Assembly (NCBI GenBank): GCA_031763025.1
Contig: JASSKH010000010.1
Location: forward strand, 9,255,427-9,319,426
DNA: 64,000 nt
Source of the DNA: Macrocystis pyrifera
Taxonomy: Eukaryota > Sar > Phaeophyceae > Laminariales > Laminariaceae
Direction: 5' to 3'
In this document: positions 1-62,101 of the stretch, one piece after another
Layout of the letters: each line of letters starts with the position of its first letter
How positions within the stretch are numbered: position 1 is the stretch's first letter
Program-made: the position numbers and the translations under genes
The notes under the pieces: model-generated
What the model was told of the DNA's origin: nothing
The model's database searches: none
The model's input: only the letters and a program-made list of their open reading frames with translations

Positions 1-47
1 CTTTCCACACCTCGGTCAGATCATCGATCAATCTATTACTCGTAGTA

Positions 48-161
48 TTACGGGAGAACATATTAAATAGAACCAAATTTTGTCAGTAAAAATAGGGACA
101 ATTTTAGGTTTTTTTGTGTAGCGTACCTGGTATAGGTCCTACTTACTATGGTCCCCCGTAA
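48..161 (+). mobile_element. MITE-A copy 1 (Tc1/mariner-type MITE)
   Basis: MITE-A is a non-coding element of about 106 bp. Its inverted ends read TTACGGGGGACCATAGTAAA for the first 20 bases, and the inverted match continues for about 27. The AT-rich centre contains ACCAAATATTG and GGTTTTTGTG, which give it a direction. It is flanked by TA on both sides, the target duplication of Tc1/mariner elements. It has no coding capacity, so a transposase must come from elsewhere. This copy carries a 9-nt extra block containing TACCTGGTA (124-132), and its right-hand TA is part of a TATTAATA word. Confidence 0.8.
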
Positions 162-174
162 TATTAATAGTAAA

Positions 175-405
175 CCTTCCAGGGTAGACAGATCTGTATG
201 ATCTGTATGTTCTGTATGAACTACCTCATGTTGCCGGGTGGGACCTGTATAATGCAGCACGACCTAGCGCATGTTTCTTGGATTGGATCTGTAGTACACA
301 TGCAGTTCGCTCTCACGACGGTAGGTGACGAACTAGATCATCTACAGATCATCTCGAACAGATCATCTCGAACAGATGATCTAGATCATGATCTGTCCCC
401 AGGGT
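175..405 (-). repeat. dispersed repeat I, copy 1 (GATC-rich)
   Basis: About 220 bp with recurrent GATCTGTA, GATCATCT and AGATCATGATCTGTCC, plus a conserved block around CTCATGTTGCCGGGTGGGAC. Similar blocks occur near 2435-2790, 11745-12000 and 58945-59160; the last two read in the opposite direction. No coding capacity seen. Confidence 0.6.
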
Positions 406-1434
406 AGAAGTTATCACGCACCGCCTACAAGTTCCGAGACCTCGAACCCTCGCGAGCGCCCAATTACAACCAACTCCGATCTCGATCTCCCCGTCGTTCT
501 TATTTTGCGTGTTCCCACTAATTACTGTTATTATTATATCTATGGACTCCCTACTTTCGTAGAGTTCCAAGGGTCCCCACTGATGTCGTAGCTATGACCT
601 GCTACCGAAGGCTGCACCTTTCCTTTCTTAGATTTTAGGGCAAGGAGAGAGCCCTCCACGGTGGGTTAGCAGCTTGGAGAAAAGAGAGAGGTCGAGTGAG
701 ATTCAGACGGGCAAAAACAAGGCCCGTCTCGACTTCAAGGAGGCTCGGGCTACTAAGCCGAGTTCTCCCGGTTTTCGGAAATATTCTCAGATGTGACACC
801 ACTCCTCATGTATCTTCCAGGGGTACATGTGCGATGACCGTGCTGCGAACCTTTCCCAAAACTTGTCCTCCAAATTTCAAATTCTTTAAAAATAAACGAC
901 CGTAGTTAAATTCTCATTTACGTTCGTAAATATATCTTCATACTCCCATTTACGTTCGTAAAGCTATCCTTTTCTTACTCTTATTTCACATTCATATTCT
1001 TGTTTATCATTCATTGTGGTTCCTATTGTCCATCAAGACCTTCATCAGTGCGCAGCCCAAGAGTCCGGATGCGCACCGCCGATCGCCCGAGTCCCAGGCC
1101 ATAATTGTATTCAATGCACACGCACAGTAGGAGCAGCAGAGGATACCCCGACTTACGAGAGGGCACGTCAGCCTTGTCAGTATTGCGGTCCCTCCGCGGG
1201 GACAAAACTACTTAAGCATTTACAGGTTTATCCACAAAAAAGGACTGCAGTTTGCCCTCGGGTCACGATGATACTATCAATACGGTTAAGAGAGGCCAAA
1301 TCGGCTGGACCCGCCTACACAGAGCTGTATATTTCCCGCTGTGGACAACAGAGAGAATACTATCGATCGTCAAGAGAGGTGTTCTCGGCCTGGCCTGTAC
1401 CAAAAAGTCTTCTATTACTATTAATATTAATAGT

Positions 1435-1644
1435 ATTGCAGTGACGTTTTGGGGATAAACAACCTATGAGGGGGGGCCATAGCAAATAGGACCAAATATT
1501 GTGACTAAAAACAGGTAAATATGTACCTGGTAGGTTTTTGTGGGCACCCTAGGTCCTACCTGGTATTTACTATGGTATGGTCCCCCGTAACAGAAATCGG
1601 GTGGTTTTGTCTCCAACTTGGGACTGCAGTCCTGAACGGGTCAA
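1435..1644. mobile_element. MITE-B copy split by a MITE-A
   Basis: The left arm (TGACGTTTTGGGGATAAAC, 1442-1460) and right arm (TTTTGTCTCCAACTTGGGAC then TGCAGTCCTGAACGGGTCAA, ending 1644) form one MITE-B. Its central loop is occupied by MITE-A copy 2. The order of events is clear: B was there first. Confidence 0.65.
1467..1590 (+). mobile_element. MITE-A copy 2, carrying two 7-nt scars
   Basis: Inserted in a MITE-B loop. Compared with its siblings it has two exact 7-nt additions. GTAGGTTTTT has become GTACCTGGTAGGTTTTT (word at 1524-1532), and TCCTATTTAC has become TCCTACCTGGTATTTAC (word at 1557-1565). The left terminus is decayed (TGAGGG instead of TTACGG), and a further TATGG is duplicated near the right end. 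Confidence 0.75.
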
Positions 1645-2078
1645 GTCGGGATATCCACTGCTGTACCGCTATTAGCATTCACACATATTATACGAGTACT
1701 CGTAACATATTTTGTTCGTTTTTTTGTTGGCTCCAATCGCTTCATAACAACAATACTAACATTAACATTCTCATTATTTCGTCATTATTTCGTCAAACCT
1801 GAATCAGCGCCAAGTCGAAGAGCCCACACCCAATCGCCTGAGCCCCGGGCCTTCCCTCCAACGCTCCCAGAACATTTTCCCGGTCCTCGTGGGAAATGTT
1901 AACCTGTCACCGAAAAAAAAACATACGCACACAGCATTACGTAGCCTTTGTCAGACCCCCGCCCACAATTACCCATCATCAACCTTACCAAACATACCTT
2001 GGTGGCAAGGGGGGGGGGAGATGAGCCTGAGAAATATTTGGCGCCGGATGTGAGATACGACCGCTAAGGGCTAATAAG

Positions 2079-2210
2079 GCTCATTCTTATCGGAGAGCTT
2101 TTTGTCCATAATTTCCGAAGTTTGGAAACAATTGGAGATATGCATCAAGATACGGAGGCGTTCTGTCACTGTTCGTGAAATTTTCCAGAAGCAAAAAAAT
2201 CAGGTTTGTC
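2079..2210 (+). repeat. dispersed repeat N, copy 1
   Basis: About 130 bp from GGCTCATTCTTATCGGAGAG to CCAGAAGCAAAAAAATCAGG. It is closely similar to 19131-19262 in the same orientation, with scattered substitutions. Both copies stop at the AAAAAAATCAGG block. Function unknown. Confidence 0.65.
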
Positions 2211-2434
2211 AACCTCCACGTAGTTGGGAAAAAAAATTAGGAAAATCTGGAAGATTGAAAAATTGCGCGAAAACAACATGGGGATTACGGAAAACAAAGC
2301 TCGCTCCGATAAGAATGACCCTAAGATATCAAATGAGAAATTATTTTTTTATTTGAAAAAAATAGATGAATAGCAAACACACTGCCGTGATCGATTTATT
2401 CATACACATCAGACAGATCCTCGATTCATCTGTT

Positions 2435-2790
2435 CGTAGTAGACCTTTCCGGGCAGACATATTCCTGATCTGTATGATCTAGCTCATGTTGCCGCGTGGG
2501 AGACGCACAATCTGCAAGATATGTTGGGACAGGTTTCCTGGGTTGGATCTGTCCTCTGCTGCGCAGATCTTGCAGAACAGCTCATGTCGGCAGGTTAGGA
2601 TCTACACGAAGATATGTCTGTAGATGATCATATCTGTAGATGATATATCTATAGACGATCTACCTGTAGATGATACATATGCAGATGATCTATCTGTAGG
2701 CGATCTATCTGTAGGTGATCTATCCGTGGGTGATCTATCTGTAGATGATCTATCTGCACATAGATACTCGTAGATCGTGTCTGTCCGACG
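2435..2790 (-). repeat. repeat I copy 2 with GATCTATCTGTAG minisatellite
   Basis: The left part repeats the GATCTGTATGATCTAGCTCATGTTGCC block of repeat I in broken form. From about 2625 to 2775 there is a tandem array of a 16-nt unit close to GATGATCTATCTGTAG, roughly nine copies with point changes. Confidence 0.65.
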
Positions 2791-2837
2791 CGTGACCATA
2801 TTTCACTCAGTAAGGACCGTTTTGGGTACTACGGTTA

Positions 2838-2929
2838 TAACCCTACTAGGACTGCAGTACCGCTTTGGGGAAAAACGACTCAAAATTAGAGTGGTGGCTG
2901 TCCCCGAAACAGGGGTGACCGCAGTTTCT
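2838..2929. mobile_element. MITE-B copy (decayed)
   Basis: Two facing arms, AGGACTGCAGTACCGCTTTG and GTCCCCGAAACAGGGGTGAC, followed by CGCAGTTTC. Its right end is interrupted at 2929 by MITE-A copy 3. Confidence 0.55.
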
Positions 2930-2930
2930 A

Positions 2931-3042
2931 TCACGGGGGACCATAGTAGATAGGACCAAATATTGTTCGTAAAAATAGGAAAATATATACCTGGCAGGTT
3001 TTTGTGAATACCGTAGGTCCTATTTACTATCCTCCCCCGTAA
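2931..3042 (+). mobile_element. MITE-A copy 3
   Basis: TCACGG end, TA on both sides. It carries TACCTGGCA (2988-2996), a one-base variant of TACCTGGTA. This is an exact 7-nt insertion at the same TA that is hit in copy 2. Confidence 0.75.
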
Positions 3043-3894
3043 TAGTACTGAGACTACTCGTAGTTCAAAAAGGGTTACTCGTGACCAGCACAAAAAACGG
3101 AAAGTGAGTACAGGTCTTTGTCAAACTCTCACCGCATTACTATAGTAACAATATATTTTAATTATGTCCGACAACGCAAGTACCGCTTGGGTGCTCACAC
3201 CGTAGTTATACCCAAACGGTGCCTTTCATCACCAGACAGAGCAATATCACATGCGAAACAACAAGTACCGGCACCTGGTGGTATCTCGTACCTCGTACCT
3301 GGTACGATATACGGGATTCGGAGTGGAGCAATTATATATCTGGCATCACATATATACGTACGCATGTACGAGTATATAGGTAAATTACTGTATGTTCTAC
3401 TGCTTGTGACTGGTCAGAAAAATATCGTGAACCTTTTTTTCCTGCCCCATGTTGCCCCACAAAGCAGCACCTAGCGCTATAGGGGGCGCTCGGCTGGGCT
3501 TATGTCTCCAAGGAAGGTATCCTATACCGGTAAAAAAGTATTTTTTTTTCATCTAGCCGGTCGATACTCTTCTTCATTATTGCTACGAAACAAGCATAAA
3601 CGACAGCGGCCGAAATAAAGCCGACCGATCGAAGGTTTCGGTCTTTCCGTCGATCACCCCGCAATAAGAGCGCCACGGTATTTCCGGCGGGGACTCAAAA
3701 ACAAAAACGAAACAGTTACGTCGGCATTTTCGACACCAAAACGAAAAATACCGAATCGTGACTCATTTTGGCTACCCTTCGTCTTGAACGACACTCCATG
3801 CAGGAACAGTAGCAGCAGTACTAGAAGCAGAGGTAGCAGCCATAATACACGAAGGTACAAGTGGACCACGGTCGTCCCAGTCCCATGATCACTA

Positions 3895-4003
3895 TTACGG
3901 GGGGCCATAGTAAATAGGACCAAATATTGCTAGTAAAAATATATATATATATATATAGGTTTTTGTGTGTACCGTAGGTCCTATTAACTATGGTCCCCCA
4001 TAA
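3895..4003 (+). mobile_element. MITE-A copy 4
   Basis: Well preserved ends with flanking TA (AC-TA and TA-GT). The centre has expanded into an (AT)n run at 3938-3957. Confidence 0.8.
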
Positions 4004-4129
4004 TAGTAGCAGCGTGAGAGTACAATTGCTGTACTATCCAAGTAGCTATTTACCGCAAAAAGAACGCGAGATGATATGTCACCCGTCTCTAGGAGCACTG
4101 AGGCTCTATCACAGCCCGCAAGTCTCCAG

Positions 4130-4255
4130 CTAGTTGGAGCGGAGGTGGGTAGAGCGGCCCATCGAACTTTTATATCCAGGCTTTGCTTGTTGACGGAACG
4201 CTCGCTCGTAATTCTCCGCTGAAAGTTGATTGGTGATATTCTGCCGCACGCTGTT
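4130..4255 (-). CDS. possible last exon of the bactofilin-RGS gene
   Basis: Open from an AAG acceptor to a TAG stop (42 codons), in the phase that would follow an exon ending after the Gln codon at 6751. The peptide contains VRQNI, then a helix-like ENYERAFRQQAK and YKSSM. This resembles the last helices of RGS domains, where an R..I element is followed by F..A and Y.LM. The usual VNL after the SP.Q motif is not visible, and the splice from exon 4 is unproven. The stretch is not part of a dispersed repeat; the inverted repeat E starts only at 4286. It could instead be chance open sequence. Confidence 0.35.
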   Translation of the reverse strand, partial: NSVRQNITNQLSAENYERAFRQQAKPGYKSSMGRSTHLRSN

Positions 4256-4285
4256 CTTGTCCGATCCGTGTGAAGCAACCAGACC

Positions 4286-4345
4286 TCATGGTATGCGTCG
4301 AGGCCGACTGGAACAGTCTTTTTTCGACACCTCACATAAGAAAAG
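4286..4345. repeat. inverted repeat E, left arm
   Basis: CATGGTATGCGTCGAGGCCG through GGAACAGTC and CGACACCTCACAT matches, in reverse complement, the stretch at about 5450-5515. Both lie in the presumed last intron of the bactofilin-RGS gene. Confidence 0.5.
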
Positions 4346-5954
4346 GCCAGAATGGAAAACAAAACCAGAGCGCTGTAATCACAGGACGATTCAAGGTAAT
4401 ACATATACCAGGTAGACAGGGTGGAGGGTATCTATAAGGGTTTTAGCCAAAATAGGGTATGCCTGGCCAATTTTCGGCCAAAATCAGTTACATGCTAAAA
4501 ACAAGTACAAAACACACCCCTGGAACCCCTCTATTCTGCTATTGGCCAGGCTCACATCGTAACTGATTTTGGCTCGAAAAAGCCAAGGTATACCTGATTT
4601 TTTCTACTCTGTCTAGCTTTCAACTGATTTTGGCCAACTTTGAACCAATCAGAGAGGCCATACGTATACTGCTGTGTTTTCTCTCCGTATGCGTCTGCTC
4701 TCCCTCGGTTGAAATTCTTCTGTATTGACGTATTGACGTATAAACTCTGTACTCGCACGTCGTACGTAAAAGTACGTATCATACATGCATACACGCGTAC
4801 GCTGGTTTCACTTTTTCTCCTTTGGGGTGTGCGATGTGCTTCAGTTAGTTGTTGTGTGTACTCTGTTTGTTGTTTTCCATGTTCACAGCAGTACCATGGC
4901 CACACGGCATTTCTTCTTGCACCACCCCGCGTCGAGGTGGTCTCAGGTTTGGTACGGCAAGATAAATTCGTGCCGAGCAGGCGGTTCCGCGAGGACGGTC
5001 TGGAAGCTTCAAAGCTGTAAATGGGGGGGTGGGGGCACCAGAGTAAATACTCTTGGCGCTCCCGCCGCGGCGAAACAAACAAAGCATATTAATAGTGACT
5101 CTCTGCAGGTCCAAGTGGAACCCGTGGTACCTACAATACACCCTGAAGAAAACAAAACAATTAAGATTTTGGAGGCCATGTGGCACGCTTAATGCTTTTC
5201 GTAGGCGCGTTCTTTTTTCACCGGATTTTCAAGAGACAGAACACCGCTCGTGGCGCGCGTTTTTTACTTGGTTTTAGAATGTACCTGGTTTTGGCTCAAA
5301 CGGATCACACAATCAGGTAAACCTGATTTTGGCATTTGCCCTATATCTATAACCAAGTGGTCCAAATTTTGGAACAAAAATGAAGAAACATAAGTGCATA
5401 CATCTTCCTGCGATCACAGCGCTCCGGATTGATTTCCGTTCCAACATTGTTCCATGTGAGGTGCCAAAAGAAAACTGTTCCGGTAGGTCGCCCTCGGATG
5501 CGTGCATGGTTTTCTGTCCGAATCGTTCCAACAAAGTTCTTATCGGTAGGGGTACGGAATTGGGAAACGACATTCATACTACTGTCGCCTGGCGGCTTGG
5601 AAAGAACATGCGAAAAATCCGAAGATCCCCACTCTAAAAATGCTGGAACCACACGCTAGCCGACTCTATATTGCCCATTTGTATACTTTATCCCATATAT
5701 ATTGGTGGAGGAATGTGGAGAAAGAGACACGAGAAAAAAAGAAAGAAAAATGGGCGGAGAAAATCACAAAACGGACAACGAACAAAAAATACACTTGAAA
5801 CCGCTGTTGTCCGTCCGGCTGCAGGCTACAGTCCGCAAAAGATGCTTAAAGCAAACAAACATTAGTAGACGTATGCATGAGACCGATTCCAACGGAAACA
5901 CAATCTTGCAACACATATGATAGTATTTCAAAGAAACCCACCGTTACCTTTCTG
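4346..5954. other. presumed intron sequence with TGATTTTGGC repeats
   Basis: Lies between the RGS exons. Short copies of TGATTTTGGC and its complement recur (about 4480, 4563, 4624 and 5328). A stretch at 4880-5020 is open in several frames (a peptide beginning MATRHFFLHHP on the plus strand), but no domain is recognised and I do not call a gene. The right arm of repeat E is at 5450-5515. Confidence 0.4.
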
Positions 5955-6605
5955 CACCGCTCGTTATGAGCACGAATCTTCATTCAATATTTCTGACTCG
6001 AAAAAAAAAGGGGGGGGGAAAGAAAAAAAACACAATTACTGGCAGGATCTTGGGTCAACATCGGCCTCAGAAAAACTCAGGCGGATGTTTAGTTCGAAGC
6101 GGCGACACTCCAGGTCCTCGTCAGACATCGATCGACCAAACCAACGACTGCGCGATGAGGTCTGAACGGGGCGCGCTCGTTACGGGGCTCCGATCCAACC
6201 TAGGGTCACGCAGTGTTTACACGACGGCCGGTGGGATGTGGCGGGCGCCAGCCGGGCGTCTCATGGAAAAAAAAGGCCGATGGATGTGCGAAACATTCGA
6301 TTGAAGTTCTCGACCCCTCTCCGACGGCGAAAAATATACCTTTTCTCACGTTTGGGTGAAAGGCGTAGGACGCCGCGGGAAACCTCTCTCCCACCGAGAC
6401 CACGGAACCGCATGATGCATTCGAGGCCGTCATCTACAATCGCTGGCCTTGCTTGCTTGACACGAAGCGGGCTGACCGTCGTGGGTCGGTTCTACGTCGA
6501 GATCAAAGGTCTTGCCGTCGCAAAGTATTATTTTTAGAATCAGCGTGTAGACGGTTGACAAATGCACCGACCGAAGCAAAAAAAGTGGTGACAAAACACA
6601 GCGAC
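5955..6605 (+). repeat. dispersed repeat D, copy 1
   Basis: About 600 bp, matching 59455-60085 in the same orientation. Shared blocks include TTAGTTCGAAGCGGCGA, CTGAACGGGGCGCGCTCGTT, GGCGTAGGACGCCGC and the TTGGCCTTGC / AAGCGGG stretch. Each copy sits inside an intron of one of the two genes. No open frame spans it, and no terminal repeats were found. Confidence 0.7.
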
Positions 6606-6746
6606 GGCGGTACGAGCACACTCTCAAGTTGTTTGTATCACACGAAAACTTTGCAGTTTGGAAACATTGTTTTGGCAAGAGTGTTTCCATCAGCACCGGT
6701 CTCGAGCGCGTACAAAAAAGAAGCCCGGGAAAGAAAAAAAAAAAAC

Positions 6747-6865
6747 CCGCCTGATCAGGAGAGTCCACCGACAAAAAAGCGTCGTAGATGCCACGAGCCT
6801 CCTCCCGCCTCGCGTCTAGCGTTGGATAAGTCGACGCCCGAAACTTCATCGCCCGCTTCCAGAAC
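6747..6865 (-). CDS. bactofilin-RGS gene, exon 4: RGS domain core
   Basis: The acceptor CAG is at 6866-6868. The exon opens with G-TTC-TGG, which completes a Trp codon begun by exon 3 (TG+G) and gives ENLWFWKRAMKF across the junction. It continues through TYPTLDARREEARGIYDAFL and SVDSPDQ. This is the central RGS signature: ENL.FW, then A..IY..FL...SP.Q. RGS domains bind G-alpha subunits and speed GTP hydrolysis. The 3' edge is uncertain. A donor may be GG-GTTTTT (exon end 6747) or a GC-type site after CAG (exon end 6751). A T11 run follows directly. Family assignment is strong; the exact boundary is not. Confidence 0.82.
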
Positions 6866-6957
6866 CTGCGTCACGTTAGCAGGCGTTTTTTTTTGTTGCT
6901 GTTGTCCATCATCCATTATAAACATGAACCTTCAAGGCACACCATGCTACCTTGCTA

Positions 6958-7062
6958 TCACGGGGGACCATAGTAAATAGGACCAAATATTGTTAGTAAA
7001 AATAGGTAAAGATATAGGTTTTAATGTACACCATAGGTCCTGTTAACTATGGACCTCCGTAA
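6958..7062 (+). mobile_element. MITE-A copy 5
   Basis: TCACGG and CCGTAA ends between TA dinucleotides. It lies in the intron between the two RGS exons. Confidence 0.8.
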
Positions 7063-7214
7063 TACTAATTCTGTTTATGAAAATATCCAACACTACCGGT
7101 ACGTAATGAAGATTAATTTGCCCTCAAAGGCGTTCGCGAAGTTCTACAAAACTGGAGGCAGCGCCCTCATTTCGGGGCCAAAATACTTATAATTAGTGTT
7201 GACTCGCTTTCGCA

Positions 7215-7490
7215 GTGATGAGAGGGTCGAGTCAAGTCAAGTCGAGCTGTTCAATAGTCTCAAGTCTCAAAAATAGAGTTTCCTAATGTTTCCTGGAGCG
7301 ACTGAGCCACAATCTATTTCACGTCAACCTAATTCAAGTCAAGACATGCCAACTCAAGCCAAGCCAAGCAAAGTCGAACCAAGTCAAGCCCAGCCAGGCC
7401 AAGCCTAGCTAGGCTCAGACCACTGCAGACCAGCCCAGCCCAACCTACCCCAGCCCAGCCCAACCCGAGCCAAGCCAAGCCATAACATGC
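7215..7490. repeat. degenerate CAAGCC/CAGCCC array
   Basis: Dozens of 5-6-nt words (CAAGT, CAAGC, CCAGCC, CCAAC) without a fixed period. On the coding strand of the host gene this is a G- and T-rich intronic tract next to the exon 3 donor. Confidence 0.55.
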
Positions 7491-7512
7491 TTCGTACCAG
7501 GTACGTCCTTAC

Positions 7513-7622
7513 CAAAGGTTCTCCGCGGCGTATTCCATCTGCAGGTGTTCTTCGAAGATAAGGTCGCCGTCGAAGTGCAGCAGCATCGCCACGGACGAGA
7601 AAGCTCTCGTAAGTGAAGTCGC
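7513..7622 (-). CDS. bactofilin-RGS gene, exon 3: start of RGS domain
   Basis: 110 nt, entering in phase 0 (acceptor TATTAAG) and leaving two bases, TG, before GTAAGG. The peptide contains SSVAMLLHFDGDLIFEEHL and then QMEYAAENL, the first helices of an RGS domain: a short helix, F..HL..E, then ENL. Both the phase and the protein motif join it to exon 4, which supplies FW. The acceptor has a poor pyrimidine tract, so the 5' edge could shift by a few codons. The domain would act in the cytoplasm at G-alpha. Confidence 0.78.
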
Positions 7623-7717
7623 CTTAATACCGATATTTCGAGAGCAACTATGCCATGGCTGGGAAGAGTGTGTGTAGGCGGGAAGGAGGAGGAGGAGGAG
7701 GAGGAGGAGGAGGAGGG

Positions 7718-7762
<45 letters not shown>

Positions 7763-8332
7763 AGGCGTTTGGTATGCACTACGGACGATTTCGTGTCAGT
7801 ACATGTTGGTGGTGGATTGGGGGGGGGGGGGGAGGAGGCGGCGTGTTGGTGTTTGGTATGTGCTGAGGGCGCTTTGGTGTATGTTGTTGGTGTTGGTGCG
7901 GTTGTTGTGTTGTTCTTGGTGCTGATGGTGTGAGTGTCGTTAGCGCTGGAGTGGTTGTTGTTCGTATTGTTGATAGTACGGGGGTCCAAAGTTAATAGGA
8001 CCTATGGTACACACAAAAGCCTATATATTTACCTATTTCTACTAACAATATTTGGTCCTGTTTACCATGGTCCCCCGTAATAGCGGTGGGGCGCACATCA
8101 GCGTGAAGCCTTGTGAACCAGGGCCAGTTCGTGGCTGAATACAGAAGACGAAAAAATCTTTTGCACCTGCTAAAAAAAAAAACACAGAAAAAAGTCGGAG
8201 CGAAGCCAACTCTGCACAACAGTATACCTTGCACATGGCTACATAACGCCACAACCGCCTTGCCCTCCCCCCGCCCTCAAACCCCCTCTCCCCCCCTCAT
8301 CTCGCCTCCTCCCCTTACCCCCCAAAACTCAC
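7623..8332 (-). other. intron with GGA repeat and G41 run
   Basis: Starts with a consensus donor GTGAGT (8327-8332). It contains a GGA repeat followed by 41 G (7721-7761, plus strand), a second G run near 7819, and MITE-A copy 6. The G runs have no coding role. Confidence 0.7.
7976..8080 (-). mobile_element. MITE-A copy 6
   Basis: Reverse orientation. The left end has decayed to GTACGG; the right end CCCCCGTAA is intact and followed by TA. Confidence 0.8.
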
Positions 8333-10085
8333 GTCAGGCTGCGAGCCGCCCGAAACGTCATCCATCCCAAGACTCCGTTGGTCCTTCTCCATCGCCTCCC
8401 GGATCTCACGCGGCAGCGGACACCCTCCCCCCCGGCGCTCCCCAGGCGATTGACCACCAACTTCCTCTCCCTCTCCCTCTCCCTCTGCCGCTTCCGCCTC
8501 TGCTTCCTCCTCCGCCGCCGTGGAAACAGCAGCGGAAGCGGCAGCCGCGGCCTCCGCTGTCGCCGCTGCTGCCGTCGTTGCCGCGGCCCCATCCCCCGTC
8601 CCCATGCTGCGAGACGGCGGGAGGGAAGGCTCTACCCACGCCGACCCAACATCGTTACCGTTTCCGTTACTTCTGACGTTACCGCTGACGTTGCCGCTAC
8701 CGCTGCCGGAACCCGGACCGTTAGCGGCAGTACCGTGACCGGTATTACCGTTCCCGCTGCGGTTACCGTTGACGTAACCGCCACCACTACCGCCACCACT
8801 ACTGCCAACGCTCCCGCTGCGGCGGCGGACAGGTCGCTGCGGTGTCTTCGGCCCCCCCCTGCCCCCCCACCCCCCCCCCCCCCCCCCCCCCCCCCCCCGC
8901 CTCCTCCACCCCTACCCCCACCCCTGCCCCCAACAAAGCCCATCCCGACGCTCCTGCTCCCGCCCTCAGCATGCACGCATGCCGGCGACGGCGGCGGCGG
9001 CAACAGCGTCGCCCCTCCCCCCTTTTGGCCGCCGGAAAAGGGGCACCCGCTACCGGCCGGCGGGGCGGGGCGCGCCGAAAACGATAACGGCGCCGCAGGT
9101 GCCACCGCCGGAGACATCGCCCAAGCGGACCCAGCCGCTACAGCGACCGCGTCCGGCGTTCTAGGGTCCCCCGCGGTTCCCAAGCTAGCGATGCTGATGC
9201 CTCTCAGCCCAGCACCGCCGCCGCCGCCGCCGTCGCCGCTACGGCCAGCGATGCTGCCGAGACCCGCGGCGGTCAACCCACCGGCAGGGGCCGAGCCGTG
9301 GACGCCCGACCCAGCGACAGCCGGGCCTACTGCCGCAGCCCGGCCGACGGGCGCAATCGAGTCGCCGCCGGCGCCGGTGCCGCCAGCCGCGGGAGTGGAG
9401 AAAGATAACGACGAGGACAGCGGTGGCGATACCAACGAGGACGACGACAACAGCGACAACGAAGATACGGACGCTGGCGAAGGTTCTGGCGCGGAGGCGT
9501 TTTCCGCGTGCGCGGGGCCGGGGGTCGGCAGGCGTCCCCCCCCCCCCCGCGCTGCTCGGTCGCTCATACAAGGATAACGGTGCGCGCGAGGAGTCGGGCG
9601 CCGTGGGGTTGGAGGAGCTGCCGTGGCCGAGGCTGTAGCTAAGACCTACGCTGTGGCTGGTGTTGTGGCCGGGACCGGTGCTGGTTATGATGTGGCCTGC
9701 GCTGTGGGTGACGCTGTGACCGACGAGGGGGCCGCTGCTGCTGCCGCTGCTGTAGCTGTTGCTGCCGCTGCTGTGGCAGTGGCTGCTGTTGCTGTTGCTG
9801 TGGCCGTGGCTGTGGCTGTGGCTCCGCCCGCGGTGGGCATCCCCCGCTCCGCTTAGCGCTCCCAAGATCGGCCCGCTAGAGGACGCGCTAATGCTGCCGC
9901 CGTTGCTGTTGCTGCTGTTGTTGCTGTTGTTGTTGTTGCCGTGGTTGTTGGTTTGGTTTATAGACGCTGATATGCCTGCCTGGTAACGCGCGGAGGCAGA
10001 CGACAAGACTGGACCCGCGTTCGCCGAAAGCCGGTTGCGGAAAACAGCTGTCGATGCCGCGGCCAAGTCTTTGCACCACACGTTT
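8333..10085 (-). CDS. bactofilin-RGS gene, exon 2: end of bactofilin helix and low-complexity linker
   Basis: The acceptor is a strong pyrimidine tract ending CTCTGACCAG (10086-10095); the donor is GAC-GTGAGT at 8332. The exon opens with one base that completes a Gly codon from exon 1. The first peptide, NVWCKDLAAASTAVFRNRL, continues the beta-helix pattern. The rest is low complexity: an Asn/Ser/His/Gly tract (SHSHSHGHSNSNSS) to about 9550, Ala/Pro/Ser/Gly to 8900, Asn/Gly/Ser, Ala and Glu runs, and finally REIREAMEKDQRSLGMDD. It is not one open frame. The convincing frame changes at a C13 run (9536-9548) and at a C28 run (8871-8898), and after the second it returns to the frame that ends in phase at the donor. 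Homopolymer length error, or true slippage variation, is the simplest explanation. Likely a flexible linker. Confidence 0.65.
8871..8898. repeat. C28 homopolymer in coding exon
   Basis: Twenty-eight C, preceded by C8 and C7 runs from 8852. It encodes poly-Gly on the minus strand and is the point where the linker frame shifts. Confidence 0.85.
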
Positions 10086-10117
10086 CTGGTCAGAGGAGGG
10101 GGGAGAGGAGATCGGTG

Positions 10118-10390
10118 CATGGCGGGGTGGTGGTGAGCGGGGGGGGGCGTACTCAGTTGTTGCTTGCCTTAGCAATTCACCATTGACCCCGCATCCCTTC
10201 CGAGATATCGCATCGTTCCTACTCCTGATAGAGACACCTCCCAACATTTCGCGCGCGGGGGGCGGGGGGCGGGGGGGGGGGGGGGGGGGGCGTACACATG
10301 TGTTGCTTGCCTTAGTCATCTGACCATTGACCCCACGCATCCCTTTCGAGACGGAGCTTGATCACGCAACATTTAGGGGGGGGGGGCAAC
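10118..10390 (+). repeat. repeat P, two tandem copies with G runs
   Basis: Two copies of a unit of about 160 bp: a G run, then GTTGCTTGCCTTAG, CCATTGACCCC, GCATCCCTT. The G runs are 9-22 long. Related units, always next to G runs, are at 15290-15385 and 58740-58830. Confidence 0.65.
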
Positions 10391-10946
10391 GAATCGTGGA
10401 TGTGCTCGATGTATTTTAGAGAGGGCTGCATGGACCTTGGCCCAGCTGCGACGAAATGGTTGAGCTTTAAAACATTAACCCAAACCCCGAACGCCTCGGA
10501 AAATTCTGGGAAAAGTCTAGGAAGATTGCCAGAACGAAGACGTAATGAGGAGTTACCAGTAGTGCCGACCATCAAGAACGTTTGTCGAAGTTAGGTCAAG
10601 TCGCATTAATGCTATTGCTACCTGGTACTGACGAAAACAACAAAATTGCAATTTGCAAACCCGTTTCTGAGGTCTGGTCTGGCATACCCGGGTGGCACAG
10701 GGGAGGCGCATGTGGGGTCTCCTTGATGCGATGTACATCGGCGGGAACTTTATGCGGGTCTCTTTGATGTCACCTGGTGTTGAATATCGATACCTGGCAC
10801 TGGTTAGGCTTTCTGCCTCGCAGCTCTTGTGGTCGGAAACAAAGTCGACACCTGGCACCCAGGATACTATTGCTTGTCTCACGCAGTCCGTCGCGTATAC
10901 AAACATTGACACCAGATGTAGCACCAAGATGGCACCTCATCTACTA

Positions 10947-11053
10947 TTACGGGGGTCAACATAGGTAATAGGACCTATGGCATACATAAAAACCTATATA
11001 TTTACCTATTTTCAATAACAATATTTGGTCCTATTTACTATGGACCCCCGTAA
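10947..11053 (-). mobile_element. MITE-A copy 7
   Basis: Intact TTACGGGGG and CCCCCGTAA ends. Left flank TA; right flank has become TT. Lies in intron 1 of the bactofilin-RGS gene. Confidence 0.8.
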
Positions 11054-11129
11054 TTGTCTAGACTCCGATTTCGGTTTTCTGTCTCACACTCTGTGACCTT
11101 ACCACAAAACCTGTACCAGGGTTATCTCT

Positions 11130-11425
11130 CCCCGATGAAAAATCAGGATAAGACACTCTGCTGTGTGTATGTGCTCATGCCGTTGGGCAAAAGGAATTGA
11201 CCACGTATCTTGCACCAGGGGGGTATGCATCTCTCTAGGATGAACAAATCAAGACAAGACACTGCTGTGCGGGTTGACGTTTCCGGGTAAACAAGAGCTG
11301 GCCGACCACATAACTTGTGCACGTAAACGTAGTACATGGCACCCCTCTGTCTAGGATGAAGAATCAGCACGGACACTCAAGTTGTGCTGATTGATGCTGG
11401 TATCTGTCAGGTACGAATATAGAAA
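11130..11425. repeat. repeat O, tandem diverged copies
   Basis: Two or three diverged units around CATCTCTCTAGGATGAA, GACAC and GTTGTGCTG. Similar pieces occur at 16040-16110 and 25040-25100. No coding function seen. Confidence 0.45.
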
Positions 11426-11744
11426 CTACCGGTTAGATGTCAGGACGAAATTACTGCCGAGAGTACCTGACGAATCGAGGAGCAAAACGAAATGATGGCG
11501 ACGGAGTGCTAGCAGTGGCGGCGGCAGCTGCGCTCGGTCTGCGAGAAGGTGGAAAAGGCACAGGTACATCATTGTCGCGTACTCTACATGCGCAGTACTG
11601 CACCAGTCAGATCGAAAACAAAATTAAGCGTTACTGGAAGCTCTCGCGGCACACCATCCATTACCACTCTAGACGAAAATGTAAGGACCTCTCGGGGTTA
11701 TAAATATGAAGACCAAACGGTCCGTTTCTCTGACAGATCATGGT

Positions 11745-12000
11745 CTATCTATGTACAACAGATCATCTAGTTCGTCACCTGCCGTTGTGAGTGGTTGTTT
11801 GTGCAGGATCTGCATGTGAAGTACGGATCCAACACAGGAAAATATGTGCTGTAGAGCATACCGATTACACAGGTCCCACCCGGCGGCAACATGAACTAAT
11901 TCAAACAAAATCGAGAACAGATCTGACTTGAAAGATCTACATCAAGTCGGAACAATCTGTACATGATCTGTATATGATCTGTCCAAGCTGTGAAACAGTC
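11745..12000 (+). repeat. repeat I copy 3
   Basis: Matches the reverse complement of 175-405, including TGTGCAGGATCTGCATGTG, the GGTCCCACCCGGCGGCAACA block and the closing ATGATCTGTATATGATCTG. Confidence 0.55.
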
Positions 12001-12184
12001 CTCACGATTGCGAGCTGAGTGGCACACCATACACTCAAGATGGACGAAAATGATAAAGGACCGTTGGGGTACAAACATGAATACCAAACGGTCCTCACAG
12101 TTCCGTTCAAAGTGGTCTATACGTATGCCTTATACTCATAGTACTTGTCATAGATCAGACTGATGAAATACGTGTCCTAACATT

Positions 12185-12555
12185 GGCGTCGTCGGCAGGA
12201 CTCACTCACCCTCCTACGTGGGCGTTCCGTCGGATTCAAGACCAACTGGATCGTACTTTATACTTACTATCAGGGTGAAAAAATACGTGCGTAACACTGG
12301 CGACGTCGTCATACGTATCCTAGCACTGGCGTCGTCGGCAATAATATCCTACAGTCACACTGGCGTCGTGCATACGTATCCCTAACACTGGCGTCGGCGG
12401 CATACGTATCCTAACACTTGTGTCGTCGGCATGCTTATCCTAACACTGGCGTCGTCGGCATACGTATCCCAACTCTGGCATCGTCCGCGTACGTATCCCA
12501 ACAATGGCGTCGTCGGCATGCATATCCGAACACTGGCGTCGTCGACAGGACTCAC
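12185..12555. repeat. minisatellite abutting the bactofilin exon
   Basis: About ten units of roughly 30 bp with the core CACTGGCGTCGTCGGCATAC plus GTATCCTAA. At the far end, 12197-12233 repeats the last bases of exon 1 and its donor almost exactly (CTCACTCACCCTCCTACGTG, then GGCGTTCCGTCGG). An exon end and splice site have therefore been copied and now flank the array on both sides. Confidence 0.75.
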
Positions 12556-12559
12556 TCAC

Positions 12560-12783
12560 CCTTCTACGTGGGCGTTCCGTCGGAGGTCGACGACGGAAGC
12601 GCTAACGTTTCCCACGACAGTTCCCTCCACCACCACGGAGTGGCACCCCTCGATGTCCCCGATCACCACACCGCTCCGGGCCACGATCACGTTCGGGCTC
12701 CCCGCGGGCCTCAGGACTCCCTCGAAGCGCCCCTCCACGCGCAGGAGACCCTGGAACTCGAAACGCCCCTGCGGGTTTTCCAT
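12560..12783 (-). CDS. bactofilin-RGS gene, exon 1: bactofilin domain
   Basis: Bactofilins are beta-helical proteins that polymerise without nucleotide and act as scaffolds, mainly in bacteria. The peptide shows repeating G.v.G..... rungs: LLRVEGRFEGVL, NVIVARSGVVIGDIEG, SVVVEGTVVGNVSA, VVDLRRNAHVEG. It ends in two bases, GG, at a perfect donor (GTGAGTGAG). The next exon supplies the third base and another rung. The start may be the ATG at 12781-12783 (MENPQGRFEF). Alternatively the ATG is upstream and this exon begins at 12768 after an acceptor ACCCGCAG. A candidate short leader exon with a GTGAGTATG donor at 14301-14319 is out of phase on its own. The family match is clear by eye; the join to the RGS exons rests on phase and motif continuity. 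Confidence 0.75.
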
Positions 12784-21720: not shown

Positions 21721-22260
<540 letters not shown>

Positions 22261-35304: not shown

Positions 35305-35448
35305 CTGAAAAACGCTGCCATAGCCGATGATGTGATCCGGATTCTTCGAGCGCACGAGCCTTGGCATAAAAGGTTTCTTCGGCTTGAACGCCGTTGGCGG
35401 AGAGCCCATGCTCTGCCAGGGCTTCGAAACCTCCGAGGTGGGGATCAT
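35305..35448 (-). CDS. candidate first exon, unknown protein
   Basis: An ATG opens 48 codons that end in phase 0 at TTTTCAG-GTGAGTGAG, a consensus donor. The peptide (MIPTSEVSKPWQSMGSPPTA, later PFMPRLVRSKNPDHIIGYG) looks like an ordered, conserved N-terminus rather than chance sequence. Without splicing the frame runs on to a stop near 35191 (85 codons), which is an alternative. I do not recognise the family. Confidence 0.4.
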
Positions 35449-46086: not shown

Positions 46087-49000
46087 TCACAAATCAATGC
46101 TGAACTCTGAAGCAATTTTAATCTTGAGCGCACGGGTCATCCGTAATTTGCGCAATTCCTTCACGACGAATTCAGGCGCAGCAGAATAAATCGACCGCAA
46201 AGACTCCCACGTGCGCTCCTCTGCTTCGAAACCATCCCAATCGACCAAGACAATCACCTCGTTGGCATCATCTTCGGCCACATGCACCAAAGCATTCATG
46301 CGGCATTCACCCTGCGCAAAGGAATGTTGGAAAACATCCTTCAGATCAGCGGTGACGTTCAACGTCGCATCCGCATAAAATCGTAAACGAGCCACGTGAG
46401 CTTGATGCACCTTCCCAGAAACGATGTTCTGAACTGAGTACACATGATCATGATCAGCTGCTACCACACGCCACGGACCAGTCCATGTGGACAACAATTT
46501 CGGTGTGACACCCTGCCGACGAACACGAGCATACAACACGAAATCACCAACCGCAAATTTTGGCAACACCACCTGGCCCTGAGCCTGTTTACGTTTGTTG
46601 TCGCGAGACACGGCAACAGCTGCGCGAATATCGGCGCAAAATCTCTCCTGCTCTGCAACGACTTCACGGACGTTCGCACGCAACAAGTCAGCATTCATCA
46701 CGTCAACATTCCACCTGCCATCAGACTCAGAAACGAGCGCCGAGAAATCGGTACGCGGAGCACGCCCAAACATCACGCTGTACGGAGTGCTTCGGTAACG
46801 TTCACGAAACGAAGTGTTCAAGGCCCACTGAGCGGCCGGCAAAACATCAACCCACTCCGAAACCTGACGACGTTGTTCTGACAGAATGGAACGCAGAGCA
46901 CGTACCACCTCTTTTACCATGCGTTCACACGTACCGTTCGACCACGGCGTGTAAGCGACAGCAAAACGATGTTCGATGTGCAACGCGTCGCTCAACAAAG
47001 CAAGCACCCTGTTCTTGAAATGCGTGGCGGTATCACTCACCCACACACGCGGCACCCCCAAAGTCTTACACCAGGCTAGCAAATGCTTCGCTGTGACCTC
47101 GGCTGTACAAGCCTCGGCCGGTTCCAACGCCACGTAGTTGGACAAATCATCCATGATGACCAAAACATATCGGAAACCATCCTCATCAGGCAGGCCATCG
47201 CTACCTTCGGGCCCGCTGTGGCCAACATACAAAAAATCAAAGTGCACCACTTCTCCCGGAGCGGTACCATGCACCGTGTCTCCGTAGGGACGAGGAATGA
47301 GTGCACCTGCACGCGTGTCTACACAGTGCAAACACTGGCGAACGAATTCGCGAACCTGAGAATCCATGTGAGGCCAAACACAATATTCCTTCAGGCGAAA
47401 CAAAGTCGGCGCCACACCACGGTGACCAGCCGAGCGCATGTGCGCGCACACCATCAAACGAGTTTGAAGAGCAAGATCATCCGGCGGAATCCACAAGACG
47501 TCACGCACCCCAACACGCACACGAAACAAACCATCATCGGCCAAGGTAGCTTGACCGAAGGTTGTCGAAAATTCATGAACACCAACGCCGATACGAGCGA
47601 CAGACCTTTGTTGCGAGGCACGAATCACATCCAATGCGGGAAGCGAATCGTCAGCATTACATGGGCTGTGCACGGCAACCGAACGAACAGGCACCGTAGG
47701 AACTTTGACCCAACGAGACAACAGATCCCCCCAACAGTTTCGATCGCCAGGGATGTGTTCGATTGCATAGCGGTATTGTCCTAAAACACCCTTCCAATTC
47801 TCTAGGCGTTGTGCCATGGTCTTTGTGACCGTCGTGACACACTTCTCCGGATTGAAAATGTACTGCAAGTTTCGATGATCAGTAAAGATATGAACACCAC
47901 CCCAAAGCAGGTATTCGAGCCTCCGGAACGTATTAACGATCGCAAAACCTTCTTTGTCGACAGTCGCCCAGCGCAACTGCGAACCTGTGAACGAACCACT
48001 CAGAAATCCGAGAGGCTCGTGAGACATGCTTTCCAACGCCAATCCACTGCGAAATTCGTGTTCAGGCACTTGGGTGAGAAAACTACCCCAATGGAAATCA
48101 GAAGCGTCAGGAAACATCAAAACAACGCACCCGGGACGAGGATGATGAAGCGGCACTGCTTGCGCCACCAAACCCCGTGCGGCATTCCACGCCCGCACCC
48201 GATCCTCCGTCCACGCGGTATCCTTGATGACACGATTGCGCGCCACTCGCTTAGTCCGACGTGTAGCCCCAACAAGGAGCTCCTCCAAAAAATCACGTAA
48301 CGGTGCTACCGTTTCCGCTAAACGTGGTAACGATGTACGCAACCAGTTGACAGCCTGCAAGAATTGCATTAGTTCTCCAGCGTTTTCGGGACGACGCATT
48401 TCACTTAAACCTTGCACTCGAGCGGGGTCATGGGACACGACACCATTGGAATACACCTTACCACACCAGACCAGTTCACGAGAGAAGAAGGTACACTTGT
48501 GGGCGGCGACAAACAGTCCAACATTCTCCAGGCGTTCAAGAATGTCATCAAGCAGCTGCAGAAGAGCTTCTTCGGTGTCTGCGAAAAAGAAAACGTCATC
48601 GACCCAAACTTTGCAATCCAAACCACGCAACACTTCAGTCATGACACCTTGGAAATAAGAAGTCGCATTCAAAACACCTTGGGGAACACGGGTAGGCGTG
48701 AACAAACCGTCGCTTGTCGCCATGGTGAAGACGTCTTGCGCCTCCGGAGCCAAAGGCATCTGCCAGTACCCTTGAAGTAGGTCCAGCTTGCCGAAGAAAC
48801 GCGCCCCCAGCAGATCTCCCATGTCTTCATGGTTGGGCATGACGCCCGGGGACTTCTCCACCCGTGCGTTCACCGCCGAGTAGTCGCTCACCAAACGGAA
48901 AGAGTCCTTCTTGGGCACCGCCATCGCCGGACTCGCCCACACCGCCTGGATGTTGTGGTAGACAAAGCCAAAAAACACCAAAGCAGCAATGCACTTCGAG

Positions 49001-51096: not shown

Positions 51097-51303
51097 AATC
51101 CACAGCAGTCCACCTGGACTCTACTGTAATAACGGAGAAACTGCCGCCTGACCTGTGCGTCCTCCAGCTCCCGGAGCGTCCTCCCCTGCTGTGCGCTTCA
51201 AGCCGTTTCGATCCGTCCAACGGGCCAACTGCCTTCCCAGCTGTGACCCAATACTCCGCAGCCGAAAACTCCTCCAACAGAAGTTCCGCGAATATCTAGA
51301 TAT
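51097..51303 (-). other. retrotransposon leader; PBS not identified
   Basis: Next to the 5' LTR there is a perfect 14-bp palindrome, AATATCTAGATATT (51291-51304), where a primer binding site would be expected. The first TGG is about 27 nt further in (TGGAGGAGTTTTCGG). No clear match to a tRNA 3' end or to the LTR start (self-priming) is visible. Confidence 0.5.
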
Positions 51304-55710: not shown

Positions 55711-56861
55711 GTAGGGACTTTTTCTTGCATAAAATTAAATAGCGGAAAGCGCGAGAGCGTGAGTTAGCTGTACATTCGATGAAAGTCGACGAGCAGTGGG
55801 AATGCTGAACCCTATGCGCGATAAAAACTAAAAAGGCACGTACCGGGGGGGGAGAAGGGGCGACACCTGTGACCACGGCTTGTCCAGAAGATCTTCGAGG
55901 GTAAAACCTCCTACGAGTGGGCTGGAAAGTAAAAGTGATCATGAAAAATAAATAAATAAAAAAAAAAATATCGAGAACCCCCCCCCCCCCCACCGGGCTC
56001 CCCCGTCGTCAAAATAGCATAGCGTTGAGAGGAGTTGCTTTGCACGTCATGGCTCCGACTATTATACTGTGTTGTTGTACAGTATACTACAGCAGTAGTG
56101 ACACACACTTCTTTGAGTTTGGATGACTCCCTGCGCTTCCTGGCGGTTCTTATCCACCGAGTCCTTGAGAGATCATTCTTGACATGCACACGGGATTTGT
56201 CAGCTGCGAGCGGGGCGCGGATTGGGGGGCGAGCTACGAGAGCATTACACCCGCATGACTGGGGGTACCTGGTACCGGTCGTATACCTGGTATTAGCATA
56301 ACCGATAACCGACAACAGTCCCCAGCGGATCCAAGAAAAACGAAAAAAACTGAAACTGTAACCGTCACTTACAACAACAGCCTTCCGGTTTATCGAACTC
56401 CGCCGGCGATTTTTGAATTTCTGATTTCATCAAGGTTGAGAGACTTGCCTCTCACCACAAGAAGAGTTTGCAGCTCAACTCTTCGCCGACAAGGACCCAG
56501 CCAGGCCTGACGCGCACCGCCTCCTGACCCGCTATCTACCGGACGGGCAACGGTGTCGCTTCCGTCGTCTCTGTGGCGTGATCGATTTGTCTGTTGTCGT
56601 GGCGTGCCCGACCAATTTCAAATTCGACAAACGGCAAACGCACACAAAAAACAGCTCAGAAAAGAGGCGACGAGGCATACCTGTACCAAGGCGACGTCCT
56701 CCAGCGAGGACATAGCTCGCTGCCCCCGGCGGTGACAGCATCATACAGAAGCTGCACGGCGGTAGAGCTTGCGCAGAGCTGTAGCAAGCCCGCCATCTTC
56801 TGTCGGCAGTTCTCGCTGCACCTCTCTCTCTTGCCGTGCCTGCCTGGCTTGAGAGGTGAGT
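55711..56861. other. upstream region of the kinase gene
   Basis: Contains two TACCTGGTA words (56264, 56284) and GC-moderate sequence that probably includes the kinase promoter and 5' UTR. No TATA box or initiator can be assigned with confidence. The long minus-strand open frame here overlaps kinase exon 1 antisense and is a shadow. Confidence 0.4.
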
Positions 56862-57014
56862 ATGGAGCAGTTCGACATCTTGCAGACCCTTGGAAGGGGC
56901 AGCTTTGGAGTGGTTCGAAAGGTCAGACGAAAGGCTGACGGCAAGGCGCTGGTCGTGAAGGAGATGGATTACGGCGCTGCTGACGAGAAGCAGAAGGAGC
57001 AGATCGTGGCTGAG
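56862..57014 (+). CDS. NEK2-like protein kinase, exon 1
   Basis: Codes for residues 1-51 of a NIMA-related Ser/Thr kinase. The ATG starts MEQFDILQTLGRGSFGVVRK, with the glycine loop GRGSFG at 11-16, the ATP-binding Lys at 33 (ALVVKEM) and the alpha-C Glu at 51. Position 51 is directly followed in exon 2 by VNILREL, as in animal NEK2 (SEVNLLREL). NEK kinases act at centrosomes, spindle poles and basal bodies. The donor is GAG-GTATGG, phase 0. An upstream GTGAGT at 56856 is in frame but is not an ATG. Confidence 0.92.
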
Positions 57015-61920: not shown

Positions 61921-62085
61921 CGAATATTTGGACGAAGCATTCCTATGGAACCTCTTGTGCCAGGTCGTAGTCGCCCTAGAGTTCTGCCATGGAAGGATGG
62001 GGAGGGGGGGGGGGCGAGGCGGCCGATTATTCACCGCGACCTGAAGCCCGACAATGTCTTTCTCACCAGCGATAACGTTGTCAAG
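61921..62085 (+). CDS. NEK2-like protein kinase, exon 3, frame broken at G11
   Basis: Starts EYLDEAFLWNLLCQVVVALE then FCHGRM. After a run of 11 G (62004-62014) the convincing reading is one frame over: RRPIIHRDLKPDNVFLTSDN then VVK, which holds the catalytic loop HRDLKPDN. As written, the first frame stops soon after the run (at 62043). A run of 12 (or 9) G would join them, so a homopolymer miscount is the likely cause; a damaged allele is possible. Donor AAG-GTGCGT, phase 0. Confidence 0.85.
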
Positions 62086-62101
62086 GTGCGTACCTAGCTG
62101 A

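What the first reader, a model, noticed from the sequence alone, without database searches (positions are those of the whole stretch)
4130..12783. A bactofilin-RGS fusion protein encoded by split exons
Exon 12560-12783 has clear bactofilin rungs and leaves two bases at GTGAGT. The exon starting at 10085 supplies the third base and another rung. The far end of that exon is in phase 0 with the exon at 7622, which begins an RGS domain completed at 6865 (ENL, then W by splice, FW, then A..IY..FL..DSP.Q). Bactofilins are mainly bacterial scaffolds, and RGS domains are eukaryotic G-protein regulators. I know of no described protein combining them. If real, it would place G-protein switching on a self-assembling filament.
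Basis: partly seen in the sequence, partly recalled or inferred. Interest (0 to 1): 0.87.

Follow-up and report, generated by a model that had tools for sequence, protein, structure and literature searches.

The report
Brown-algal bactofilin-RGS fusion gene
A brown alga carries what looks like one gene that joins a bacterial-type filament-forming domain to a regulator of G-protein signalling, and the same gene in a second species also carries a haem-binding globin domain, which suggests a gas-sensing signalling switch tethered to a self-assembling scaffold.

Summary
The window is from a brown alga. A gene on the minus strand has a bactofilin domain (Pfam E 4e-18) followed by an RGS domain (E 1e-9). 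The decisive evidence is P0013 (EukProt g6999.t1, 1027 aa). It carries bactofilin, RGS and a third domain, a globin, in one chain, and matches the window collinearly over six exons.

Exon 4 starts at 7658, not 7622. The RGS domain continues in an unseen exon at 1903-1799. Exon 10085-8333 is not open as assembled: six in-frame stops, perhaps G-run length errors or an unseen intron.

The globin exons would lie left of base 1; I could not reach them, so the globin is shown only in P0013.

Most likely mechanism (inferred): the bactofilin domain polymerises and concentrates a G-alpha-inactivating RGS domain on a filament, and haem-ligand state of the adjoining globin tunes it. My paper searches found no description of this architecture. 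Bactofilins in stramenopiles are already known. Transcripts are needed to exclude two adjacent genes.

The parts
35305..35448 (-). Exon 1: start codon and conserved N-terminal peptide MIPTSEVSKPWQSMGSPPTAFKPKKPFMPRLVRSKNPDHIIGYGSVFQ; ends phase 0 at CAG|GTGAGT
   Evidence: tblastn of the Scytosiphon protein P0001, E 5e-17; P0013, E 8e-15; sequence; donor; SPPTAFKPKKPFMPRL identical in the window, P0001, P0007 and P0013
12560..12768 (-). Exon 2: core of the bactofilin domain; acceptor CCCGCAG, donor AGAAGG|GTGAGT, leaves two bases
   Evidence: Pfam Bactofilin; 76% identity to P0013 over 71 residues
8333..10085 (-).
   Evidence: Both ends match P0013 (res. 115-132 at 10084-10031; res. 454-481 at 8434-8351). 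Not open throughout: six in-frame stops, so length errors or an internal intron must be assumed
9536..9548 (-). Run of 13 G inside exon 3; the natural-looking frame changes here
8870..8898 (-). Run of 29 G inside exon 3; the frame returns here
7513..7658 (-). Exon 4: first half of the RGS domain (PWHSC...EYAAENL plus TG); acceptor CTTCCCAG, donor GTAAGG
   Evidence: P0013 match 7679-7512, E 9e-16; phases
6751..6865 (-). Exon 5: RGS domain (WFWKRAMKF...FLSVDSPDQ); acceptor GACGCAG; donor reads CAG|GCGGGT, a GC-AG intron if the P0013 junction holds
   Evidence: P0013 match E 1e-10; splice sites
1799..1903 (-).
   Evidence: 86% identity to P0013 over 37 residues, E 4e-12; sequence
12196..12233 (-). 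Second copy of the end of exon 2 with its splice donor, 350 bases downstream of the first

Best explanation
One brown-algal gene, at least 33.6 kb long (35448 down to 1799 in the window, and continuing beyond it), encodes a protein with an N-terminal bactofilin domain, a long low-complexity linker, an RGS domain and, in the orthologue P0013 and probably here too, a globin domain directly after the RGS domain. Shown: bactofilin and RGS exons in the window in one order and on one strand, and all three domains in one predicted protein of a second species. Inferred: the bactofilin domain polymerises into filaments; the linker holds the RGS domain off the filament; the RGS domain speeds GTP hydrolysis on G-alpha subunits; O2 or NO binding at the haem changes RGS activity through a near-linkerless RGS-globin junction. 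The filament would set where G-protein signals are switched off, and the gas would set when. My estimates: about 0.85 that it is one fused gene, 0.8 that the RGS part is GAP-competent, 0.75 that the globin is present in the window's species, 0.4 for haem control of RGS activity.
Against: P0013's name (g6999.t1) looks like an ab initio gene prediction (recalled naming style), so its chain may not be transcript-proven. Exon 3 has six stops in the needed frame as assembled. The middle of the linker is not conserved beyond composition: in the preferred frame the best ungapped score was reached by 27 of 100 shuffles and the gapped one by 33 of 500; the other two frames did no better. The 12 relatives show no RGS domain, but that search was limited to chains of up to about 213 aa; one of them, Hapterophycus P0007 (114 aa, 8.4-kb contig), ends where exon 2 ends and is not marked partial. 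The search for longer chains found a single fused protein, and the RGS-region search found none, P0013 lying outside its length range. No globin match in the window. The AF2 model is poor over the RGS domain (block pLDDT 35-59), and its globin part was matched best by helical bundles.
Confidence: 0.7

Rival explanations
1. Two neighbouring genes, a bactofilin and an RGS(-globin) protein, lie head to tail in brown algae and were merged by the gene predictor in P0013 as by the reader here.
For: Exon 3 as assembled carries six in-frame stops between its two ends; without any correction the bactofilin frame would end at 9241, and an in-frame ATG at 8605 could open an RGS gene. P0013 looks like a predicted protein. 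Hapterophycus P0007 is a bactofilin-only chain not marked partial, though it stops at the end of exon 2.
Against: The end of exon 3 just upstream of the RGS exons is conserved (12 of 22 identical), including residues before the shared Met of that block. The two ends of exon 3 are in one phase. The Scytosiphon protein is marked partial rather than stopped. Two species share order and strand.
Confidence: 0.14
2. The fused gene is real in brown algae but is a decaying copy in this genome: the stops in exon 3 are true mutations.
For: Six in-frame stops in exon 3, two long G runs at the frame changes.
Against: The N-terminal and RGS blocks are open and 78% and 72% identical to P0013 with fitting splice phases; 424 single-intron solutions also keep an open frame, so the stops need not be in the mRNA.
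Confidence: 0.08
3. Bactofilin and RGS are fused, but the bactofilin domain no longer forms filaments and acts as a small dimerisation or lipid-binding module.
For: No call tested or showed a filament in an alga; in the model the bactofilin core is followed by a long low-confidence tail.
Against: The interface Phe is kept and the modelled fold matches the filament subunit closely.
Confidence: 0.25

Closest known systems
Bactofilins of bacteria (Caulobacter BacA, 2n3d; Thermus bactofilin, 6rib)
   Same: Beta-helix core by model of P0013, interface Phe
   Different: Intron-split gene; N-terminal peptide is a different, longer basic-aromatic one; joined to RGS and, in P0013, globin
Stramenopile bactofilins (Deng et al. 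2019, known to me only through one sentence in PMC9448923)
   Same: Bactofilins in the same eukaryotic supergroup
   Different: The sentence mentions no fused partner; the original paper was not read
RGS proteins such as RGS14, RGS16, RGS18
   Same: RGS core with both aligned Asn
   Different: None of the 25 solved sequences listed is named as joined to a bactofilin or globin
Haemoglobin-like protein fused to Roadblock/LC7 (3wfw)
   Same: Closest solved globin to that of P0013, E 7e-19; also a globin fused to a domain family tied to GTPase regulation (tie recalled)
   Different: Another partner domain, no bactofilin
GRK of Ectocarpus (PMC3307776, passages)
   Same: Brown-algal protein with an RGS fold in a multidomain chain
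   Different: A kinase inserted into RGS; no bactofilin or globin mentioned in the passages

Membership tests
Bactofilin (PF04519) | Score above Pfam gathering cut-off | tested here: met
   65.9 bits against 27.9 on the window exons
Bactofilin (PF04519) | Beta-helix fold | tested here: met
Bactofilin (PF04519) | Polymer-interface Phe near the C-terminal end of the core | tested here: met
   AVF of the window aligns with the BacA and Thermus Phe; F in 8 and L in 2 of 10 spanning loci, of 21
Bactofilin (PF04519) | Forms filaments | not testable with these tools
   needs protein
Bactofilin (PF04519) | N-terminal membrane-targeting peptide like MFSKQAKS | tested here: inconclusive
   Conserved SPPTAFKPKKPFMPRL has Phe and Lys but is not the bacterial motif
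RGS (PF00615) | Score above Pfam gathering cut-off | tested here: met
   38.9 bits against 23.9 on the window exons; in P0013 47.6
RGS (PF00615) | G-alpha contact residues | tested here: met
   Two Asn aligned with RGS14/RGS16; their role is recalled. The C-terminal contacts lie outside the window and were not tested
RGS (PF00615) | GAP activity on G-alpha | not testable with these tools
   needs an assay
Globin (PF00042) | Globin domain encoded by this gene in the window's species | tested here: inconclusive
   No match in the window, which ends about 1.8 kb past exon 6; present in P0013, 42.1 bits against 22
Globin (PF00042) | Proximal His and haem pocket | tested here: met
   In P0013 only: His of RH aligned with 3wfw and 3s1i; role recalled

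The most novel reading that the evidence does not exclude
Brown algae evolved a haem-gated G-protein regulator built on a bacterial cytoskeletal filament: bactofilin-RGS-globin in one chain, in which oxygen or nitric oxide at the globin switches RGS activity through a near-continuous helix at the RGS-globin junction, and filament assembly sets where in the cell G-alpha is turned off.
Probability: 0.35. Interest if true: 0.92.

Novelty: new variant of a known kind. Interest (0 to 1): 0.78.

Why it matters
If true, a bacterial filament protein has been captured into a eukaryotic signalling chain in a lineage that evolved multicellularity on its own. It gives a testable route by which gas level and position could be read into G-protein signalling in brown algae; Ectocarpus has six G-alpha paralogues, and the only brown-algal RGS-fold protein I met in the passages read is a receptor kinase. 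It would also add a eukaryotic role for bactofilins and, with the orthologue, a globin joined directly to an RGS domain.

Tried and rejected
Rejected: ATG 12783 as the start (P0001 places an upstream exon). Rejected: acceptor 7622 for exon 4 (the P0013 match runs past it to an AG at 7660-7659). A Pfam scan of the three minus-strand frames of 1-7622 found no RGS end, but it did not find even the known RGS exons, so it tests nothing.

Led nowhere: viral-contig scans with the bactofilin and with the RGS piece found no relative. The RGS-region protein search had 97 candidates, none at E up to 1; by the tool's length rule it stopped at about 975 aa, below P0013's 1027. A bacterial donor: 21 bacterial loci of mixed phyla, 27-40% identity, none close. 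Linker frame test not significant. Foldseek gave no match at E up to 0.001; bactofilins were the top three, and globins appeared only as weak rows. In the 50 rows shown by VIA-align neither a globin nor an RGS chain is listed, which tests little.

Papers (open-licence library, full-text word search): bactofilin with eukaryot and RGS domain (247 papers with at least two terms, 20 listed, none of those with all three); bactofilin with brown alga (1, unrelated by its title); with stramenopile (1, PMC9448923); with globin (1, unrelated by its title); with Ectocarpus (0); with horizontal gene transfer, eukaryote, algae (2,299 with at least three terms, 20 listed); RGS domain with globin domain and alga (0); globin with RGS domain and stramenopile (0); globin domain with Ectocarpus (2).

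Not reached: a search of the window's own genome. The genome search gave no answer at any try, so neither the globin exons nor the G-alpha genes of this species could be looked for. I then fetched 145 stretches of the contigs of G000, nearly all 200 bases long, every one of C1 to C94 at one or more places and C100 once, to find the window's contig. Exact 200-base matches to the window fell only in its retrotransposon: C2, C23, C32, C43 and C59, with a partial match in C16. C2, C16, C23, C32 and C43 were excluded by further stretches and C59 by its length. Single 30-base matches in C37, C83 and C84 were not followed. The contig was not found; a window split over two pieces could have been missed.
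Full report
What organism this is. The joined bactofilin exons of the window find brown-algal proteins as nearest named relatives: Scytosiphon promiscuus (P0001, 67% identity, E 8e-41) and Hapterophycus canaliculatus (P0007, 79%). Twelve proteins passed E 0.001 among 86 candidates, 11 of them at 66-95% identity and one, P0012, at 37%. A 131-aa fragment, P0002, is 95% identical over 61% of the query, so a near relative has been sequenced. The window is full of MITE-like palindromes, simple repeats and long homopolymers.

The bactofilin part. Exon 2 alone passes Pfam's cut-off (48.3 bits against 27.9); the first codons of exon 3 lift it to 59.8. The chain of P0001 crosses the same place (GNVWCKDLAAA). 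tblastn puts them at 35436-35305 in the window (E 5e-17), with an ATG at 35448 and a GTGAGT donor. Intron 1 is therefore 22.5 kb. Five ORFs inside that intron, of the ten ORFs scanned, gave no Pfam domain. With exon 1 the bactofilin score is 65.9 bits.

The RGS part. With exon 4 starting at 7658 and exon 6 added, the Pfam score is 38.9 bits, and the best solved match improves from 1.7e-5 to 5.8e-7.

One gene or two. The decisive search used the joined window protein (770 aa), scored on residues 1-140 but, by the tool's length rule, open to chains of about 423 to 1347 aa. One protein passed among 1232 candidates: P0013, EukProt g6999.t1, 1027 aa, 76% identity over 95% of the region, with Pfam domains bactofilin, RGS and globin. 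My own scan confirms all three. tblastn of P0013 on the window gives matches in strict order on the minus strand: residues 2-44 at 35439-35305, 44-114 at 12771-12559, 115-132 at 10084-10031, 454-481 at 8434-8351, 495-550 at 7679-7512, 551-588 at 6864-6751, 588-624 at 1906-1796. Identity is 94 of 121 in the N-terminal block, 88 of 122 in the RGS block, and 12 of 22 in the GCPLP block that ends exon 3. So order and linkage are conserved between two species, and in one of them both domains are annotated as one chain. What remains open is whether that annotation is transcript-backed. Against it: none of the 12 relatives shows RGS, but chains above about 213 aa were outside that search; P0001 is marked partial, P0007 is not and stops at the end of exon 2 on an 8.4-kb contig.

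The flaw in exon 3. In the frame needed at both ends the assembled exon has six stops. Two G runs, of 13 and 29, sit where the better-looking frame changes. The middle frame is not supported by conservation: the best ungapped match was reached by 27 of 100 local shuffles and the gapped one by 33 of 500. An internal intron would also do: 424 donor-acceptor pairs, from 32 donors and 41 acceptors, keep the frame open. I cannot choose between length errors, an intron and true stops; the first two seem likelier because the blocks outside the linker are intact.

The third domain. In P0013 the RGS domain (536-637) is followed at once by a globin (664-764). Its best solved relative is a haemoglobin-like protein fused to Roadblock/LC7 (3wfw, E 7e-19); 32 solved sequences passed E 0.001. 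The aligned Tyr (FY), Gln (QG) and His (RH) are those of a haem pocket; that reading is recalled knowledge. NCBIfam's nearest model is the flavohaemoprotein (67.9 bits, far below its 432 cut-off; only its globin part is matched). In the model the last RGS helices run on into the first globin helix with hardly any linker (H608-629, H634-654), but confidence there is low (pLDDT 37-55). In the window the match stops at exon 6 (1799) and nothing of the globin is found. Whether this species has it is likely but unproven.

Mechanism. Bactofilin cores polymerise without nucleotides; in BacA the F130R variant is polymerisation-deficient, spreads through the cytoplasm and binds membrane only marginally (PMC12448750, passages). 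The equivalent Phe is present here and in 8 of the 10 bacterial loci whose match reaches it, of 21 examined. RGS domains speed GTP hydrolysis on G-alpha (established knowledge); the two Asn in AEN and VN align with RGS14 and RGS16, and Ectocarpus has six G-alpha paralogues (PMC3879662, passages). The N-terminal peptide SPPTAFKPKKPFMPRL is identical in the window, P0001, P0007 and P0013; it is basic and aromatic as is BacA's membrane peptide, but is not the same motif. Put together: a filament that holds an RGS domain, perhaps near a membrane, with a haem globin next to it as the likely sensor. The first half rests on domain homology; gas control is inference.

Origin and novelty. Bacterial loci matched at 27-40% and came from many phyla, so no donor is visible. 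Bactofilins in stramenopiles have been mentioned in print (PMC9448923, one passage, citing Deng et al. 2019, not read). I found no paper on a bactofilin joined to RGS or globin (listings of an open-licence library only, and only the first 20 rows). A globin from Ectocarpus is mentioned as a BLAST hit in PMC3631397 (passage), without architecture.

Limits. No transcript was available, the own-genome search did not complete (last try), and only one fused orthologue was found, from a EukProt species that the record does not name.

Noticed in passing
window 46087-51120 (-): Long open frame of a Ty3/Gypsy-type retrotransposon (reverse transcriptase, RNase H, integrase, zinc knuckle). Exact 200-base copies of its body or flank lie in other contigs of the same genome, so it may be recently active.
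   Followed up: partly
window 56853-57200 and 61519-62097 (+): Protein kinase-like exons (Pkinase E 6e-7 and 0.002, both below Pfam's cut-off as single pieces), to the eye like a NIMA-related kinase, on the strand opposite to the bactofilin gene.
   Followed up: no
window-wide, e.g. 3899-3999, 6962-7058, 7980-8076: Palindromic MITE-like element with ends GGGGGACCATAGTWAAYAGGACC, 36 matches with up to 3 mismatches against none in 100 shuffles, many as facing pairs about 73-81 bases apart between starts; several lie in introns of the gene.
   Followed up: partly
window 12196-12233 (-): The end of exon 2 with its splice donor is duplicated 350 bases downstream, near a 29-base tandem repeat; a possible second donor.
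   Followed up: partly
window 21732-22247: Long AGT trinucleotide array, 173 copies, inside intron 1.
   Followed up: no
window 6751/6750 (-): The exon 5-6 intron appears to use a GC donor (CAG|GCGGGT) if the P0013 junction is right.
   Followed up: partly
P0013 residues 536-764: A globin directly behind an RGS domain in one chain: a possible haem-sensing RGS regulator, of interest apart from the bactofilin.
   Followed up: partly
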